Below, one piece after another: positions 25,805-32,196 of a stretch of 64,000 nt of DNA (position 1 is its first letter; every line of letters starts with the position of its first letter). The notes below the pieces were generated by a model. The model was not told the origin of the DNA and did not search any database. It saw only the letters and a program-made list of their open reading frames with translations. The DNA is from a virus: positions 23,313-87,312 of IMG/VR virus record IMGVR_UViG_3300036668_000173; one strand, given 5' to 3'. The position numbers were made by a program, and so were the translations under genes.

Positions 25805-25812
25805 TATAAATA
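25805..25812 (+). promoter_or_regulatory. Late promoter TATAAATA, 5 nt before an ATG
   Basis: Exact late consensus. Predicted transcription start coincides with the ATG at 25818. There is no purine-rich ribosome site in the preceding 40 bp, so a leaderless message is predicted. Confidence 0.65.
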
Positions 25813-25817
25813 TACAC

Positions 25818-26831
25818 ATGAAAACCTTTAAATCCTTCCTAGCCGAGCAAGTCAAAATTTCTACCAGAGAACAGGTAGAATCAATCATTGCTTCGTATAA
25901 AAACGCCAGCGAGATATTGAATCCTGACTATCAGAATTTAGCTCAGAGAGCAAATAACATATTGTCAAGATATTCGGAATTGGCTAAAAAACCTGTATGG
26001 GATTATTTCAGAGATCTACGTCAATATGACGAGGTCACTGATTTAGACTATGGATGGGGTATTGGTTTATCTTTAAATGGTTTGTCGACCTTCGAGAAAA
26101 AATTAGATAAAATTAAAAAGACGAAATACCCAGCCGAAGTAAGTGGCGTTGTAAAAAAAATTGTTTCTGTTGCCGATAATATCTTGAGCGATTGGAAACA
26201 AATCTCTATTGACATGAAAGCCTTAAAGCTCAAAGTCGTAAAGGTTACTGTAAAGCGTCAACAAGAAAAAGAAGTCAAGACAGAAATACTTAAAGGTAAG
26301 TTTCGTGATTCTTCTTCCTTGATAAAAGTACTCGAGAGTCATTTAGAAGAGTATAAGGAAAGGGCTAGAACAGAGTCTACGAAATTTGTTAAATCTAAGC
26401 TCGATGCGCTGGCCGCAAAAAATTGGGATTTAAGTGTCGTGGCACCTCGACCAAATAGTAATAATTCGAGAGAAGAATATATGAGAGCAATTGCTCGTAG
26501 ATCTATCTATGAGTTATTGACTGATTCAAAAGATAAAACGCCACGATCCACATCAGATGTTCGTGTAGTTCGCGAATTGGGTGTTGCTAAATATATCAAA
26601 GATAGCGTAGACGGAGCCGAGCAAAGCTATCGGGAGTTTATGCAAAAGATGATCGAGAAAATTGGCAAGCCAGTTGTAACTGCGAAGTTTTTGGGTAACA
26701 TCTGGACAGGTTCAGTTCTTGATGTCGTAACAAACGATGGCGAAAGTCAGCGCTGGAACACTAAGATGATCATTAACTTTTCAAAGTATCAGAAGATGTT
26801 TAATCAGTTTCCTACAACCAGAAAAAAATAA
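25818..26831 (+). CDS. Large putative head-packaged protein
   Basis: 337 residues. Starts MKTFKSFLAEQ, close to T4 internal-protein leaders (MKTYQEFIAEA in IPIII), with a gp21-type site L-A-E. The body is lysine-rich with no recognised domain; the C-terminal end (WTGSVLDVV, RWNTKMIINFSKYQKMFNQF) resembles a tail seen in other phage proteins. First gene of the late cargo cluster. Ejected-protein role is inferred. Confidence 0.7.
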   Translation: MKTFKSFLAEQVKISTREQVESIIASYKNASEILNPDYQNLAQRANNILSRYSELAKKPVWDYFRDLRQYDEVTDLDYGWGIGLSLNGLSTFEKKLDKIKKTKYPAEVSGVVKKIVSVADNILSDWKQISIDMKALKLKVVKVTVKRQQEKEVKTEILKGKFRDSSSLIKVLESHLEEYKERARTESTKFVKSKLDALAAKNWDLSVVAPRPNSNNSREEYMRAIARRSIYELLTDSKDKTPRSTSDVRVVRELGVAKYIKDSVDGAEQSYREFMQKMIEKIGKPVVTAKFLGNIWTGSVLDVVTNDGESQRWNTKMIINFSKYQKMFNQFPTTRKK

Positions 26832-26849: not shown

Positions 26850-27581
26850 ATGTTAGATATAATTTCGTTTTCTTCTTTTGTGGCATTGCAGGAGGGTGTA
26901 GTAAACCCTGCAATGCTTGGCGATAAAGATATACAAAAATTAGATAAAATGTTAAAGAACCCTAGGGCAAGTGAAATAGAAAAAAGAGACTCCTTGGCTA
27001 GTATACATGCCAAATATTTGCCCCTGATTACAAGTGTGATGAATAAGTTCCAATCTCAGGTCAAACGAGAAATGGGAAACCTACCAAAGGTAAAGTTTTT
27101 AGCAGGAACCAAGCCCTTCGAGTCTCTTATATCTAAAGTGATTTCCCGAGGAAAGAAAATATCAGAGATAAACGACCTAGTTCGTGGGGCAGTTCTATTT
27201 GACACCAAGGAACAAGCAGACGCCTTTGTTAAGAATTTCACTAGGAGAAACTCCTCTAATGTGGTAGAATATGAAGTGAAGGATAAGGGTTCAGACACTA
27301 CGTATGGTTATTTTGGTTCTCACCATATAGGGCTCAATATTGATGGTATAATTGTTGAGCTACAAGTGATGACCCGAAAGCTTTGGAATTACAAAGGCTC
27401 GGCACACGTTATTTACAACAATACCCGAGAAAAAAAGGGAGGCCCTAATAAGTTTGACATTTCTCAGTCTAAGAAAATCTTTGCTTTAGGGAATCGTCCC
27501 GGCTATGTAAAAGATGATTGGGATTTAAGTGAGCTAGAAGTTATTCTGGAAACTAACGATGAAGCACCGTTTCGATATTGA
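26850..27581 (+). CDS. RelA/SpoT-fold protein with capsid-targeting-like leader
   Basis: 243 residues. Leader SFSSFVALQEG has a possible L-Q-E cleavage site. Residues 85-190 resemble the RelA/SpoT synthetase fold: GTKPFESLISKV, INDLVRGAVLFDT (D109), YGYFGSHHIGLNIDG, IIVELQVMTRKLW (E170), AHVIYNNTR. The basic G-loop is not obvious, so the product could be alarmone synthesis, pyrophosphoryl transfer to tRNA as in toxSAS enzymes, or an inactive fold. An HD hydrolase follows three genes later. Confidence 0.65.
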   Translation: MLDIISFSSFVALQEGVVNPAMLGDKDIQKLDKMLKNPRASEIEKRDSLASIHAKYLPLITSVMNKFQSQVKREMGNLPKVKFLAGTKPFESLISKVISRGKKISEINDLVRGAVLFDTKEQADAFVKNFTRRNSSNVVEYEVKDKGSDTTYGYFGSHHIGLNIDGIIVELQVMTRKLWNYKGSAHVIYNNTREKKGGPNKFDISQSKKIFALGNRPGYVKDDWDLSELEVILETNDEAPFRY

Positions 27582-27942
27582 TAAATTAAGTTATGTTGCC
27601 GAATTTGTCGGTGATCATGAGTTCATATTTTATGTAGATGTGGTTGAGTCAAAAATAAACCCCTATGTTATGTCTAAGGAGTGTTTAAGTTTTGGAGATG
27701 TGTCTCCCTTAAAGATTTTTAGTAAGATTGACTCTAAGGATGTCTTTAAGATTAAAAGTCACTTGGCTAAATTTATAGATAGCGTCTTAAGTCGATATGA
27801 TCCTTATTACTTCTTCTATCGAGCAAACGAGGATCATAAGCGCTCGGTGTACTACAAATTCGGTCTTTACATTGCAAAAAAATACGGCTATAATATGTAT
27901 GTAGATGACGTATTGGGTAAATTTAGTTTTTATAAGAGTTAA
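27559..27942 (+). CDS. Hypothetical protein after the RelA/SpoT-like gene
   Basis: 127 residues, overlapping the upstream gene by 23 bp. C-terminal pattern YYFFYRANEDHKRSVYYKFG, LYIAKKYGYNMYVDD recurs in large phages without known function. Tight coupling to the RelA/SpoT-like gene makes an accessory or immunity role possible. No leader peptide. Confidence 0.65.
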   Translation: MKHRFDIDKLSYVAEFVGDHEFIFYVDVVESKINPYVMSKECLSFGDVSPLKIFSKIDSKDVFKIKSHLAKFIDSVLSRYDPYYFFYRANEDHKRSVYYKFGLYIAKKYGYNMYVDDVLGKFSFYKS

Positions 27943-27944
27943 AT

Positions 27945-28388
27945 ATGAATGTTCATGTGACTGGTGGGAACAAACTTCAAAAAGAAATTGCTCGTCAATT
28001 ATGCGAATTCTTCAAGGCTAAGTACCTCAGTAAGTTCAAAACAATACGGATAGACATTTCTATTGAAAAAAATCTAGCCGAAGATTGTGGCTGTGATGGA
28101 GCTTGTACGCCCATTGGTGGAAATCGTGGTCGAGAGTTTGAAATAGAAATTGATCGTGATTTGTCTTTGATTCAGTTTATGAAAACATTAACGCATGAGC
28201 TTACTCATGTTCGTCAATATGTGACAGGCGATATGGTAGAGGTCAAAGGTAAAGAGCCGAAGACGTTATGGAAAGGAAAGGACTACTCTAAGGTTTCGTA
28301 TTCAAAGCAACCATGGGAGCGTCAGGCGTTTCGACTTCAAGAAAGTTTGTACCTAGAATTTTTAGCGAGTACTCCGTCAATCAAATAA
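27945..28388 (+). CDS. SprT-like zinc metallopeptidase domain protein
   Basis: 147 residues. THELTHVRQY gives the zincin HExxH plus a downstream Glu-rich helix (ERQAFRLQESLY) that could supply the third ligand. An unusual Cys-rich loop CGCDGACTP lies before it. Substrate unknown; could process cargo or host proteins. Confidence 0.7.
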   Translation: MNVHVTGGNKLQKEIARQLCEFFKAKYLSKFKTIRIDISIEKNLAEDCGCDGACTPIGGNRGREFEIEIDRDLSLIQFMKTLTHELTHVRQYVTGDMVEVKGKEPKTLWKGKDYSKVSYSKQPWERQAFRLQESLYLEFLASTPSIK

Positions 28389-28451
28389 AATTTCACTAAG
28401 AGACTAAGGTCAAAAGTGATAACTTTGTTTTTATAAGGAATAATTTTTGTT

Positions 28452-28931
28452 ATGAATATACCCCACCTTGAGAACGTCGCCAAAGAAATAGCGAAGTCTC
28501 GTCATTCTGGAATGGTTGACTTGTTAGGCGTAGACTATTTCTCTGGTCATCTAACATCAGTTGCCAATGGCGTTTTAGGTGACTCAATTCTTGTGGCAAT
28601 CGCATATCTTCACGATGTAATAGAAGACACTGATATTTCACCCGCCAACCTCTCTAATGTATTAATAGCCTCATCCGATAATATGTATGACGCATCTATC
28701 GTCAAGGATGTTGTCGATGCTGTCGTGGCTATGTCTAAGGTTTCAGGTGAGACCTATAACGAATACTTAGCGCGTGTCGCCTCTAATCCTTTATCAGTAA
28801 AAGTTAAGATAGCAGATATTATGAATAACATGGACGAATCACGTGGAATTATTTCTGATCACAAATTCGTTAGCAGAAGAGTTAAGTACTCGGACGCATT
28901 AGTCTATCTACGTGGAATCGACTCGCAATAG
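28452..28931 (+). CDS. HD-domain hydrolase of Mesh1/SpoT type
   Basis: 159 residues. HD layout: H18 (SRHSGM), H33 (YFSGH), H54-D55 followed by E58-D59 (YLHDVIEDT), D122 (VKIADIMNNM). This order matches the small alarmone hydrolases, where ED after HD is typical of (p)ppGpp hydrolysis. Placed three genes after the RelA/SpoT-fold protein. Activity is inferred. Confidence 0.75.
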   Translation: MNIPHLENVAKEIAKSRHSGMVDLLGVDYFSGHLTSVANGVLGDSILVAIAYLHDVIEDTDISPANLSNVLIASSDNMYDASIVKDVVDAVVAMSKVSGETYNEYLARVASNPLSVKVKIADIMNNMDESRGIISDHKFVSRRVKYSDALVYLRGIDSQ

Positions 28932-28940
28932 GATTTAAAT

Positions 28941-29510
28941 ATGTTATTAAAACTGAGAATTTTATATAATTTATCTTTCATGTTGGTCTTGTTTGTGTTT
29001 TTATCGGTGGCAACTTACTCTATGATAAGACCAACTCCTCCTCAGGTTTTCAATGTTTCTAGTATTCAAACCTTTGATGCCCTTCCCTTGGTCACTGAAG
29101 TTATATACTATAAAAGGGATCCAATAAAAATCACAAAAAAAGACCTTGATTGCCTCGAAAAGAACATATACTACGAGGCAGGTGTAGAGAATAGAAATGG
29201 TAAGATCGCAGTTGCTCAGGTGACCTATAATCGCCTAAAGTCTGGGAAATGGGGGGACACCTTTTGTAAGGTGATATATGCGCCACATCAATTTTCTTGG
29301 ACTAAACAGCGTAAAAAGGAAAAGCCCAAAGGTGCGTTATGGGAAGAAAGTAAATCAGTCGCGAAAGAGTTCGTGAACGGAATCCGTATACAATCCCTTA
29401 AAAACTCCATACACTATCATGCCACATGGATAGATGAGCCTCACTGGGCAGATGAAGAAAGAATAGTTAAGACCATTGGTCAACACGTCTTTTACAGTCA
29501 AATACGTTAG
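28941..29510 (+). CDS. SleB-like cell wall hydrolase with N-terminal membrane anchor
   Basis: 189 residues. Hydrophobic segment about 7-28 (LSFMLVLFVFLSVATYSMI), then a Hydrolase_2/SleB domain: NIYYEAGVENRNGKIAVAQV, TYNRLKSGKWGDTFCKVIY, PHQFSW. Could be the endolysin, of signal-anchor type, or a muralytic entry/exit factor. Late promoter-like sites lie downstream rather than upstream. Confidence 0.8.
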   Translation: MLLKLRILYNLSFMLVLFVFLSVATYSMIRPTPPQVFNVSSIQTFDALPLVTEVIYYKRDPIKITKKDLDCLEKNIYYEAGVENRNGKIAVAQVTYNRLKSGKWGDTFCKVIYAPHQFSWTKQRKKEKPKGALWEESKSVAKEFVNGIRIQSLKNSIHYHATWIDEPHWADEERIVKTIGQHVFYSQIR

Positions 29511-29549
29511 TACTAGTCGAAATAAATACTACTCAAAAGTTTATTTTAT

Positions 29550-29557
29550 ATAAATAT
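29550..29557 (+). promoter_or_regulatory. Late promoter TATAAATA
   Basis: Exact consensus 79 bp before the basic cargo gene at 29637. The weaker AATAAATA (29522-29529) and TATAAATT (29594-29601) flank it. Confidence 0.65.
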
Positions 29558-29636: not shown

Positions 29637-30020
29637 ATGAAAACATTTAAAGAATTTTCGTTGGACGAACAACTATCAACCCAATCAAGGTTGAAGAAAA
29701 AGCAGTCGTTACGAAGAAATAAAGCTAAAATAAAACTAGGAAAACTAAGAGCATCAAGGAAGCTTGCATCTCAGGACGTGATCGCAAAACGCGCCAGACG
29801 TGCCGCGAGAGCCTTTATGTTCAAGAGACTAGTAAAAGGTAAAACAAAAAACGAGTTGCCTTACTCATCACGTCAGACATATGAGAAAATCATAGATCGT
29901 CGCAAGGGCGCCGTAGATAAATTAGCAAAACGCCTTATCCCTAAAATTAGAAAAGCCGAGATGCAACGTAAGTTAAATCGTCGTCAGGCTCAAAGTGGGA
30001 GCGTCGCCAAAAATGATTAA
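29637..30020 (+). CDS. Highly basic head-packaged protein candidate
   Basis: 127 residues, strongly Lys/Arg-rich. Leader MKTFKEFSLDEQ with L-D-E site. Body KRARRAARAFMFKRLVKGK, QTYEKIIDRRKGAVDKLAKR, LIPKIRKAEMQRK is a family found in many myoviruses and fits a DNA-associated internal head protein. Late promoters upstream. Confidence 0.75.
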   Translation: MKTFKEFSLDEQLSTQSRLKKKQSLRRNKAKIKLGKLRASRKLASQDVIAKRARRAARAFMFKRLVKGKTKNELPYSSRQTYEKIIDRRKGAVDKLAKRLIPKIRKAEMQRKLNRRQAQSGSVAKND

Positions 30021-31212
30021 ATCCTTTTCGGACTACCTACAAGAATCATCACGTGAAATTACGATCGTGCGTGGCGCATTTAATCCACCCATAGAAGATC
30101 ATGAAAAACTTTTCGAAGCCGCCTCTAAGCTATCGGGTGGTGGAAAGTATCGCATACATGCAACAAAACTATCAGGAACCCCTAAGGCTCCTTTGGTGTA
30201 TGAAAATAAAATAAAGTACATGAGGAAAATGTTCCCACGACATGCCAGAGCTATCGTGTTAGATTCGCATACCTCGGTTCAATCCATTCTGTCTGATTTG
30301 TATAGTGAAGGTTATACGAAAGTTAACATTGTCACAGAGTCAAAAGATTCTAGGTCATACGAAGCGATGATCTCTAATTCAAATAGAAAAGAGACAAGAC
30401 ACGGGTTCTATAGTTTTTTACCTTCGGACATTCAGATCGTTTCTGTTCAGATGAACGAATCAAAAATTAAAAATATAACCGAATCTGTTGAGACCGAAAG
30501 CTTTCAAGATTTCTGTTCACTTCTACCTTCAACATTCAAAGAATCAAAAGACCTATACAATGACGTTCGTGTAGGCATGGGACTTTTACCCATGAAAGAT
30601 TTTAGAACTCACCTACGACTAGAAACTGTTTCGGATGTACGCGAATCGTATATCATGGGAAATTTATTTAATATCGGTGATGAAGTGGTGATCAAAGAGT
30701 CTAATAAAATCGGTAAGGTTGCGCTCTTAGGATCAAATTATGTTTTGATCGAAATGTCAGACGGTTCTAAGGTTCGTAAGTGGTTGGAGTCCATAGAACG
30801 AGTCGGAGAGTATGACGAATACGAAGAGATCAACGAGGCTTGGTTTAAAGATCTTTTAGATAAAGTGTCTAAGGTCACCAACCGTGGTGGGTATCGAGAA
30901 GCATCAAAAATTCTAAAGATGGTTGTTGACAAAAAGAAAAAAGATGGAACTTTAAAACATCCGACTGGTTATTATGCAATGAGAATTGCAAAACAGTTCA
31001 AGGGTAACATAAACCCACAAGAATTGTTAAAGATGATCAGCGAAGAAGAAGAGCGTCCTGTGGGAACTACAGGAGTATTGAAAACTGCAGACTACAAAAT
31101 TTCACCTACTACGGGTCGAAAGGTTCGCGCACACACCATCAATTTGAATAGAAAAGTAATTAAACCATCGACGAAGATAGAATCATTTTCTTCGTTCAAC
31201 ACAAAACAATAA
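30013..31212 (+). CDS. Nucleotidyltransferase-like protein with targeting leader and KOW-like domain
   Basis: 399 residues. Start ATG 30013 is chosen because MIKSFSDYLQES then fits the targeting leader with an L-Q-E site; a GTG at 29995 adds six unrelated residues. Domain 1: VRGAFNPPIEDHEKLFEAA, a cytidylyltransferase-type G-x-FNPP-x-x-x-H motif. About residues 215-265: FNIGDEVVIKES, IGKVALLG, VRKWLESIERV, a KOW-like barrel. Further gp21-type sites (INEA) occur later. Substrate unknown; NMN or phospholipid-type transfer are family options. Confidence 0.75.
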   Translation: MIKSFSDYLQESSREITIVRGAFNPPIEDHEKLFEAASKLSGGGKYRIHATKLSGTPKAPLVYENKIKYMRKMFPRHARAIVLDSHTSVQSILSDLYSEGYTKVNIVTESKDSRSYEAMISNSNRKETRHGFYSFLPSDIQIVSVQMNESKIKNITESVETESFQDFCSLLPSTFKESKDLYNDVRVGMGLLPMKDFRTHLRLETVSDVRESYIMGNLFNIGDEVVIKESNKIGKVALLGSNYVLIEMSDGSKVRKWLESIERVGEYDEYEEINEAWFKDLLDKVSKVTNRGGYREASKILKMVVDKKKKDGTLKHPTGYYAMRIAKQFKGNINPQELLKMISEEEERPVGTTGVLKTADYKISPTTGRKVRAHTINLNRKVIKPSTKIESFSSFNTKQ

Positions 31213-31230: not shown

Positions 31231-32196
31231 ATGGACTTTTTCAAACTTAGAAACGAAGAACTCGGAAAGCATAACGAGGTCGGTACTCCAGAGGTGGTGG
31301 CAAAATTTAAGCGTGGTACCCCAGGGCAACTCTCTTCTCCCCCTGCTCGTCAACCCGCGCGTCGTGGTGACAAGCTCAATACAAAAATGGGTAACTATAC
31401 TAAAATTACACAAAAAGAAATTGGCGTAAAGAATAGTTTCTCTGAAGAGAAGAAGGATCCTTGTTGGAAAGGCTACAAGGCAATTGGCATGAAGAAGAAG
31501 GGTGGTAAGTCTGTTCCTAACTGTGTTCCTGTCAAAGAGTATGTCGACGCAGATCTGAGTGAATCTATCATTCAAGAAATGCAGGGTGCCAACATGGATA
31601 CTCGACAAGTTCATTCGCATTTAAAAAAGGGTGGCTGGTCTCTTACTCGAACTAGTGGTGGACATGACGTTTTTACACACCCAGATTCTGAGAATCATAT
31701 TTCGGTGCCCCGTCACAAGCAACTAAAGGCTCCTTTGATTTTAGGAATTTTAAAGACAGCAAAAACCGCCAAACCGTCTAAGCCCACCAAACCCATTGAA
31801 GAGGCTAAAAAGGCGCCTAGTTATAATTTATACCATAAAGATTTTTCGGGCGCCATGCAACATGCATATGATCATGCAAAAACAAAGTACGGCATAACAA
31901 TTCATCCAGATGAGATTGATAACAAAGTTGCCATAGGCCCAAAAAAACCATCAAGTGGAAAAACAAATTCATATAGATTAAAGGGCGACAAGGGGACTAT
32001 ACAAGTTCAGGTGGCAAACCTCGATAATAAAAGATATGAACTAAACATGTACAAAGAATCATTGGACAAGAAAGCGAATGTCGGAGATTATGTTTCGGAC
32101 TTCAAAAAATCAGATGCTCCACAGTTCAAGGGAAAGACTAAGAAAGAACGTCAGAAAATGGCAGTCGCGGCATTTTACTCTTCTAAGAAAGGGTAA
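31231..32196 (+). CDS. Multidomain late protein with embedded HicA toxin domain
   Basis: 321 residues. N part carries DPCWKGYKAIGMKKKGGK then SVPNCVPV, a motif of marine phage head proteins. Middle (about 125-180): HSHLKKGGWSLTRTSGGHD, VPRHKQLKAPLILGILKTA matches HicA mRNA interferase, with its catalytic-type His in GGHDVF. C part (YNLYHKDFSGAMQHAYDHAK ... RYELNMYKES) is another recurrent phage module. Possible protease sites IIQE and PIEE flank the HicA part. No HicB partner is seen. Confidence 0.7.
   Translation: MDFFKLRNEELGKHNEVGTPEVVAKFKRGTPGQLSSPPARQPARRGDKLNTKMGNYTKITQKEIGVKNSFSEEKKDPCWKGYKAIGMKKKGGKSVPNCVPVKEYVDADLSESIIQEMQGANMDTRQVHSHLKKGGWSLTRTSGGHDVFTHPDSENHISVPRHKQLKAPLILGILKTAKTAKPSKPTKPIEEAKKAPSYNLYHKDFSGAMQHAYDHAKTKYGITIHPDEIDNKVAIGPKKPSSGKTNSYRLKGDKGTIQVQVANLDNKRYELNMYKESLDKKANVGDYVSDFKKSDAPQFKGKTKKERQKMAVAAFYSSKKG

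What the first reader, a model, noticed from the sequence alone, without database searches (positions are those of the whole stretch)
26850..28931. RelA/SpoT-fold protein and Mesh1-like HD hydrolase as a split pair in the late cargo cluster
26850-27581 looks like a RelA/SpoT synthetase fold with a targeting leader; 28452-28931 has the HD...ED pattern of small alarmone hydrolases and no leader. If real, the virion could deliver a nucleotide-pyrophosphate enzyme at infection while the hydrolase is made inside the cell, letting the phage push and then release a starvation signal, or act as toxin and antidote.
Basis: partly seen in the sequence, partly recalled or inferred. Interest (0 to 1): 0.85.

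Follow-up and report, generated by a model that had tools for sequence, protein, structure and literature searches.

The report
Capsid-targeted RelA-fold enzyme with antidotes
A T4-like virus of bacteria carries a RelA/SpoT-type enzyme tagged for loading into its head, next to a small linked protein and a hydrolase that could undo the enzyme's product; this looks like the known MuF-Apk2 toxin and immunity set rebuilt on a different head-packaging system.

Summary
Both genes are real. ORF 26850-27581 has the RelA/SpoT synthetase fold (AlphaFold2 model; best PDB match CapRel, E 1.9e-6) with the catalytic Asp109/Glu170 and phosphate-binding Lys/Ser/Lys/Arg kept. It has a T4-type capsid-targeting leader ending in a prohead-protease-like site (LQE|G), conserved across a phage-only family. 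ORF 28452-28931 is an HD small alarmone hydrolase whose closest relatives are the Aph1 (p)ppApp hydrolases of MuF-Apk2 modules in temperate phages. All three genes probably lie in one late operon (TATAAATA at 25805), which argues against 'synthetase delivered, hydrolase made afterwards'. Best reading: a T4-superfamily counterpart of Apk2-IapK-Aph1, a head-packaged nucleotide 3'-pyrophosphokinase with a bound inhibitor and a product-reversing hydrolase. Fold, leader and linkage are shown here; activity, packaging and neutralisation are inferred. The product (ppApp, ppGpp or tRNA-CCA-PP) cannot be decided: the donor site resembles Apk2, the acceptor loop resembles ppGpp and tRNA enzymes.

The parts
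25805..25812 (+). T4-type late promoter octamer TATAAATA, 13 bp before the first ORF of the cluster
   Evidence: 5 octamers in upstream intergenic stretches against 0.72 expected, P=0.001
25818..26831 (+). 337-aa protein with canonical leader MKTFKSFLAE; first gene of the late operon, function unknown (phrog_4687)
26850..26894 (+). capsid-targeting leader MLDIISFSSFVALQE, predicted cut after E15 (LQE|G)
   Evidence: disordered in the model
26850..27581 (+). RelA/SpoT-fold nucleotide 3'-pyrophosphokinase-like protein, predicted head cargo
27559..27942 (+). 127-aa conserved partner (phrog_24699, distant DUF6934 similarity), overlaps the synthetase gene by 23 bp; predicted inhibitor or immunity protein
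27945..28388 (+). 147-aa HELTH metalloprotease-like protein between partner and hydrolase; part of the operon, role unclear
28452..28931 (+). HD small alarmone hydrolase (Aph1/Mesh1 type), no leader
29549..29556 (+). next late promoter octamer, upstream of another leader gene (29637-30020)

Best explanation
The locus encodes a three-part late module of a T4-superfamily phage: (1) a RelA/SpoT-fold 3'-pyrophosphokinase made with a capsid-targeting leader, taken into the prohead core, trimmed by the T4-type prohead protease after LQE, and ejected into the next cell with the DNA; (2) a small leaderless partner (27559-27942) that binds and silences the enzyme in the producing cell; (3) an HD hydrolase (28452-28931), also leaderless, that removes the 3'-pyrophosphate from whatever escapes. 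It works like the MuF-Apk2 / IapK / Aph1 set of temperate phages, but is delivered by the T4 internal-protein route. In the new host the enzyme would change nucleotide (or tRNA-CCA) pools at the start of infection. Shown here: fold, conserved catalytic residues, leader and site conservation, prohead protease in the same genome, linkage of synthetase and partner, genome-level co-occurrence with the hydrolase, late-promoter placement. Inferred: catalysis, packaging, neutralisation by the partner, product hydrolysis, effect on the host.
For: Fold and active site; residue roles in the FaRel2 donor site from PMC11782079. Leader plus protease-like site 11/16 against 17/461; strict leader 9/17 against 11/493 ORFs and 0.4% of shuffles. 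The same contig carries a T4-type portal and head maturation protease. Partner linked to the synthetase in 14 of 16 informative lineages, on either strand or upstream; partner never has a leader (0/11). Hydrolase in 10 of 11 records of at least 50 kb that carry the synthetase, against 1 of 16 T4-like controls (Fisher 1.4e-5). The hydrolase matches 39% over 146 aa the HD protein of a pneumococcal MuF phage, in gene order portal - MuF - small ORF - HD (same order), the order described for apk2-iapK-aph1 (PMC12226406). Synthetase family and the MuF C-terminal domain align (hhalign E 2e-5) and share D-x-x-R and E-x-Q-x-x-T. L013 and L015 hold synthetase-partner-hydrolase contiguously.
Against: No virion proteome of any carrier was available, so packaging is unproven. 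Two arginines that clamp the donor adenine in FaRel2/CapRel are missing (position 114 never R; position 86 R in only two members), which could mean weak or altered ATP use, although Apk2 also has R at D+3 and not at D+5. The partner has no fold match and no similarity to the small ORF of a MuF phage; in Vibrio phages KVP40 and D479 its fold occurs with capsid leaders of its own, so it could be a cargo or scaffold domain and not an inhibitor. Most hydrolase genes in carriers lie far from the synthetase. Controls for co-occurrence were chosen by hand and are not matched by phylogeny. Two carriers (L014, L026) lack the partner.
Confidence: 0.5

Rival explanations
1. Push-and-release of a starvation signal: the virion delivers a (p)ppGpp synthetase at entry to slow the host, and the hydrolase is made in the infected cell to switch the signal off.
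For: Synthetase fold and leader; leaderless hydrolase; hydrolase present in nearly all large carriers. The acceptor loop GYxGSHH keeps the Tyr/His seen in (p)ppGpp enzymes.
Against: The hydrolase is downstream of a late promoter in the same apparent operon, so it is probably made late in the producing cell and not early in the new one; no early promoter evidence was obtained. It does not explain the partner, the most conserved linked gene.
Confidence: 0.12
2. Leader aside, the synthetase and partner act inside the infected cell as a toxin-antitoxin or superinfection-exclusion pair (toxSAS type), not as virion cargo; the hydrolase is a safety valve or a separate anti-defence enzyme.
For: toxSAS pairs in temperate phages exclude other phages (PMC9712102); overlapping genes and strong linkage; best fold match is CapRel.
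Against: A conserved capsid leader with a protease-like site and late-operon placement with other leader genes are not needed for that; family not found in 84,980 bacterial and archaeal species genomes.
Confidence: 0.13
3. The synthetase-like protein is a non-catalytic cargo: a decoy or binder of nucleotides, tRNA or host toxSAS, derived from the synthetase fold; the hydrolase independently counters host alarmone or toxSAS defences.
For: Loss of both donor-adenine arginines in most members; phage hydrolases without synthetases are common (473 phage records with a match) and a phage hydrolase (PaSpo of SSU5) removes FaRel2's tRNA modification (PMC11559606).
Against: Catalytic D109, E170 and the K/S/K/R phosphate-binding set stay nearly invariant across members 29-46% identical to the window protein; a protein kept only for binding would be expected to lose them. 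Co-occurrence of hydrolase and synthetase is far above the controls.
Confidence: 0.15
4. The 127-aa partner is itself capsid cargo or a packaging adaptor that rides with the synthetase, and not its inhibitor.
For: The same domain carries capsid-type leaders in KVP40 and D479.
Against: In 11 of 11 linked cases tested the partner has no leader.
Confidence: 0.25

Closest known systems
MuF-Apk2 / IapK / Aph1 module of temperate phages (S. pneumoniae, M. haemolytica, P. multocida; PMC12226406)
   Same: Phage-head associated RelA/SpoT-fold enzyme, a small linked protein, and an HD hydrolase; hydrolase 39% identical to the one in a pneumococcal MuF phage; donor-site D-x-x-R shared.
   Different: Delivery by a T4-type cleavable leader and not a MuF domain; T4-superfamily phages, not temperate siphoviruses; partner unrelated to the MuF-phage small ORF by sequence; acceptor loop with Tyr and His, which Apk2 lacks; hydrolase often far from the synthetase.
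toxSAS toxins (FaRel2, CapRel, PhRel; Tas1)
   Same: Synthetase fold; K/S/K/R, Asp, Glu, Gln and acceptor Tyr positions kept; best structural match is CapRel.
   Different: Lacks the two adenine-clamping arginines; carries a capsid leader; partner is not a pseudo-zinc-finger, Panacea or Tis1 protein as far as sequence and fold searches show.
T4 internal head proteins Alt, IPI-III
   Same: N-terminal capsid-targeting leader cut by the prohead protease; late expression; predicted ejection with DNA.
   Different: Cargo is a RelA/SpoT-fold enzyme; T4 itself has no homologue.
Polyvalent injected proteins with RelA/SpoT domains (PMC5512222)
   Same: RelA/SpoT domain predicted to enter with phage DNA, sometimes beside ParB-like domains (here fused in L013).
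   Different: There a domain of a long multi-domain protein; here a separate small protein with a partner and a hydrolase.
Phage small alarmone hydrolases (PaSpo of SSU5; jumbo-phage HD-alarmone enzymes)
   Same: 28452-28931 has all HD-hydrolase residues and is in that class.
   Different: Found together with a synthetase-fold cargo gene.

Membership tests
RelA/SpoT synthetase fold superfamily | Fold and sequence similarity to SAS/RSH synthetase domains | tested here: met
RelA/SpoT synthetase fold superfamily | Catalytic Mg-binding Asp and the Glu of the E-x-Q-x-x-T motif | tested here: met
   D109 and E170 invariant in 12 homologues
RelA/SpoT synthetase fold superfamily | Pyrophosphate transfer activity | not testable with these tools
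   needs enzyme assay
toxSAS / (p)ppGpp synthetases with two donor-adenine arginines | Arg at R64 and R95 equivalents (FaRel2 numbering) | tested here: not met
   position 86 is R only in L005 and L011; position 114 never R; R112 (D+3) instead in most
Apk2 (MuF adenosine 3'-pyrophosphokinase) | N-terminal MuF domain | tested here: not met
   243-aa protein with leader; no MuF region
Apk2 (MuF adenosine 3'-pyrophosphokinase) | Catalytic-domain relationship including D-x-x-R | tested here: met
   hhalign E 2e-5, probability 77%; motif shared by three MuF-type proteins
Apk2 (MuF adenosine 3'-pyrophosphokinase) | Exclusive (p)ppApp production | not testable with these tools
   acceptor loop differs from Apk2
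Small alarmone hydrolase (Aph1/Mesh1) | HD metal ligands and ED catalytic pair | tested here: met
   H33, H54, D55, E58, D59, D122, N126
Small alarmone hydrolase (Aph1/Mesh1) | Hydrolysis of (p)ppApp or (p)ppGpp | not testable with these tools
   closest solved relative is named (p)ppApp hydrolase
T4-type internal head proteins | Cleavable N-terminal capsid-targeting sequence | tested here: met
   sequence pattern and site only: 11/16 homologues against 17/461 ORFs
T4-type internal head proteins | Presence in the virion in cleaved form | not testable with these tools
   no virion proteome held
IapK/Tis1 immunity proteins | Sequence or fold similarity of the partner | tested here: not met
   no fold match at E<1e-3, no profile match to the MuF-phage small ORF

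The most novel reading that the evidence does not exclude
A T4-superfamily phage loads a RelA/SpoT-type pyrophosphokinase into its head through a cleavable leader and ejects it at infection, where it makes an unusual product with a donor site of Apk2 type and an acceptor site of ppGpp/tRNA type; the producing cell is guarded by a new inhibitor family (ORF 27559-27942) and a hydrolase. This would be a delivery route for alarmone-type enzymes independent of MuF and polyvalent proteins, and a new antitoxin family.
Probability: 0.35. Interest if true: 0.8.

Novelty: new variant of a known kind. Interest (0 to 1): 0.62.

Why it matters
If true, tailed phages have at least twice built the same weapon or takeover tool, a head-delivered 3'-pyrophosphokinase with a bound inhibitor and a product-reversing hydrolase, once on MuF and once on the T4 internal-protein route. 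It makes testable what an alarmone-type enzyme does in the first minute of infection by a T4-like phage, helps explain why some phages carry alarmone hydrolases, and supplies a candidate new inhibitor family. The cultured Sinorhizobium phages phiM12 and phiN3 carry the synthetase-partner pair and a hydrolase and make it testable now.

Tried and rejected
Search for relatives in 84,980 bacterial and archaeal genomes: none. Single-sequence viral scan with the window protein: none; a homologue or alignments were needed. Fold of the partner: no significant match. Partner as a relative of the small ORF in a MuF phage: rejected. Partner in plasmids: none. DUF6934 in the literature: no paper. PADLOC and NCBIfam gave nothing useful for synthetase or partner of the window. 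Virion proteomics for phiM12 or KVP40 in the held papers: not found. The (p)ppApp hydrolase paper PMC10083569 is not held. The weak hit in HTVC008M is a 100-aa ORF that covers only the helical N-terminal part, rejected. The idea that HD and synthetase are one split RelA was rejected: the hydrolase is nearest to stand-alone Aph1-type enzymes and usually lies elsewhere in the genome.

Full report
The observation. ORFs 26850-27581 (243 aa) and 28452-28931 (159 aa) are intact and on the + strand. The first gives Pfam RelA_SpoT at E 1.2e-5, one bit under the curated cut-off, and phrog_37685 at 4e-45. Relatives occur in the Sinorhizobium phages phiM12, phiN3, phiM19 and phiM7, Desulfovibrio phage 7757 and Variovorax phage V45v66, where the deposited annotation of several already reads 'RelA/SpoT family protein', and in 13 further IMG/VR contigs. 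A profile of 12 members hits solved alarmone synthetases (3l9d, 1.5e-6). The AlphaFold2 model is confident for residues 16-218, with residues 1-15 disordered; its best PDB match is CapRel (1.9e-6), then Rel, RelP, RelQ, Tas1 and FaRel2, 52 matches below 1e-3. The family was not found in any of 84,980 bacterial and archaeal species genomes, so in these collections it is phage-only.

Active site. With FaRel2 as guide (PMC11782079: R64, K66, S70, K74 and R77 hold the triphosphate, R64 and R95 stack the donor adenine, D90 holds Mg, Y128 the acceptor base, E145 and Q147 the donor), K88, K96, R100, D109, Y154, H159, E170, Q172 and T175 are invariant and S92 nearly so. The equivalents of R64 (position 86) and R95 (position 114) are mostly lost; ten of twelve members have an Arg two residues earlier (R112, D-x-x-R), and the two that lack it (L005, L011) keep the R64-type Arg. 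Three MuF-phage proteins of the Apk2 type show the same D-x-x-R with no Arg at D+5, and the family aligns with the C-terminal domain of the pneumococcal one (hhalign E 2e-5, probability 77%). Apk2 enzymes are active (p)ppApp synthetases (PMC12226406), so the shift need not mean inactivity. The acceptor loop (GYxGSHH), however, has the Tyr and His of (p)ppGpp and tRNA-modifying enzymes, which Apk2 lacks. The product cannot be read from sequence.

Leader and packaging. The genome is T4-like: terminase, portal, tail sheath and tube, and a head maturation protease lie upstream of the window, a major capsid protein-like ORF follows them, and DNA polymerase, UvsX-like recombinase and ribonucleotide reductase lie in the window. 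T4 internal proteins carry a leader of about 10 residues, and gp21 cuts short N-terminal peptides off them (PMC9958956). That T4 gp21 cuts after L/I-x-E is my own knowledge. The window protein starts MLDIISFSSFVALQE|G. Across 16 dereplicated homologues, 11 have an F-x-x-F/Y type leader plus an [LIVM]-x-E site, against 17 of 461 other ORFs in the same loci, and several of those 17 look like genuine cargo; the strict leader alone occurs in 9 of 17 against 0.4% of shuffled N-termini. The window's own leader passes only the looser pattern, because of a short N-terminal extension. The late-promoter octamer TATAAATA stands 13 bp before the leader gene 25818, which starts a tight run of same-strand genes through 28931; octamers also precede the leader genes 16423, 29637 and 45006. 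The hydrolase gene follows a 63-bp gap, so its own promoter cannot be excluded.

ORF 27559-27942 overlaps the synthetase gene by 23 bp. A homologue lies next to the synthetase in 13 lineages and one gene away in a fourteenth (V45v66), out of 16 where it could be seen: same strand, opposite strand (L005, L007, L013) or upstream (L027). Linkage that survives inversion points to function. The partner never has a leader (0 of 11). It folds confidently as a small alpha/beta protein with no significant PDB match; one member matches DUF6934 (7.8e-8). In KVP40 and Vibrio phage D479 the same domain occurs in several copies, most with capsid-type leaders, and no synthetase, which leaves open that the partner is cargo or an adaptor.

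The hydrolase. All metal and catalytic residues are present. Its top-ranked phage relatives are HD proteins of streptococcal, Aggregatibacter and Pasteurella phages. In the three loci with enough flank the gene order is MuF-type or minor head protein, small ORF, HD protein, the order described for apk2-iapK-aph1; identity to the pneumococcal one is 39% over 146 aa. Across whole records carrying the synthetase, an HD homologue is found in 10 of 11 records of at least 50 kb, against 1 of 16 T4-like phages without it (Fisher 1.4e-5, or 0.004 for three genus-level complete isolates). Controls were chosen by hand and two of the ten hits are weak (2-3e-4). The gene is adjacent to the synthetase-partner pair only in L013 and L015, within 1 kb here, and 4.3 kb away in L016. 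Two hydrolases (L015, L041) carry leader-like N-termini of their own.

Mechanism. The parts list, enzyme with head address, small linked protein and product-reversing hydrolase, is that of MuF-Apk2/IapK/Aph1 with a different delivery tag. I take the partner as inhibitor and the hydrolase as second safeguard in the producing cell, because all three are probably late and two lack the head address. The hydrolase might act on ppApp, ppGpp or tRNA-PP; a phage hydrolase is known to remove FaRel2's tRNA modification (PMC11559606). Expression and enzyme tests are needed for every step beyond anatomy.

Known and new. RelA/SpoT domains in injected phage proteins (polyvalent and MuF) are known (PMC5512222). 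I found no paper in the held library on a leader-tagged RelA/SpoT protein in T4-like phages, but the library is incomplete. I class it as a new variant of a known kind.

Noticed in passing
L030 3076-4991; L071 789-1670; L072 670-1554: DUF6934-like domain proteins in several copies, most with capsid-type leaders, in Vibrio phages D479 and KVP40: a likely unrecognised class of head cargo.
   Followed up: partly
L013 9515-10549; L016 7135-7878; L027 6510-7337: A ParB/Srx-like domain (DGHHT/DGHHR motif) is fused to the synthetase behind a leader in L013, and is a separate neighbouring gene in L016 and L027; similar to polyvalent proteins.
   Followed up: no
L004 9133-10206; L005 6823-7851: Related proteins with a DnaJ-like domain next to the synthetase-partner pair, with a capsid-type leader in L004.
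   Followed up: no
L003 7861-8612: In Sinorhizobium phage phiM7 the synthetase gene is split into two overlapping ORFs by a frame change; intact copies exist in phiM12 and phiN3. It may be a broken gene or a sequencing error.
   Followed up: no
L001 3217-4452 and 9527-9997: phiM12 encodes a tRNA nucleotidyltransferase (CCA-adding type) and a peptidyl-tRNA hydrolase within about 4 kb of the synthetase; suggestive if the target is the tRNA 3' end.
   Followed up: no
window 29995-31212: Cytidyltransferase-like protein (phrog_395) with an internal start MIKSFSDYLQESS, a capsid-type leader: another candidate nucleotide enzyme as cargo.
   Followed up: no
window 31231-32196: Protein with a HicA toxin-like domain (Pfam 3.4e-10) in the same cargo region.
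   Followed up: no
L016 6678-11721: In this contig several neighbouring proteins share a different N-terminal pattern (MTLARRLL.., MTITRKLMGVNE, MSTKKLMGVVE), perhaps another class of head-targeting leader.
   Followed up: no
window 28941-29510: SleB-type cell wall hydrolase (Pfam Hydrolase_2, 9e-24) with an N-terminal hydrophobic segment, directly downstream of the alarmone hydrolase.
   Followed up: no
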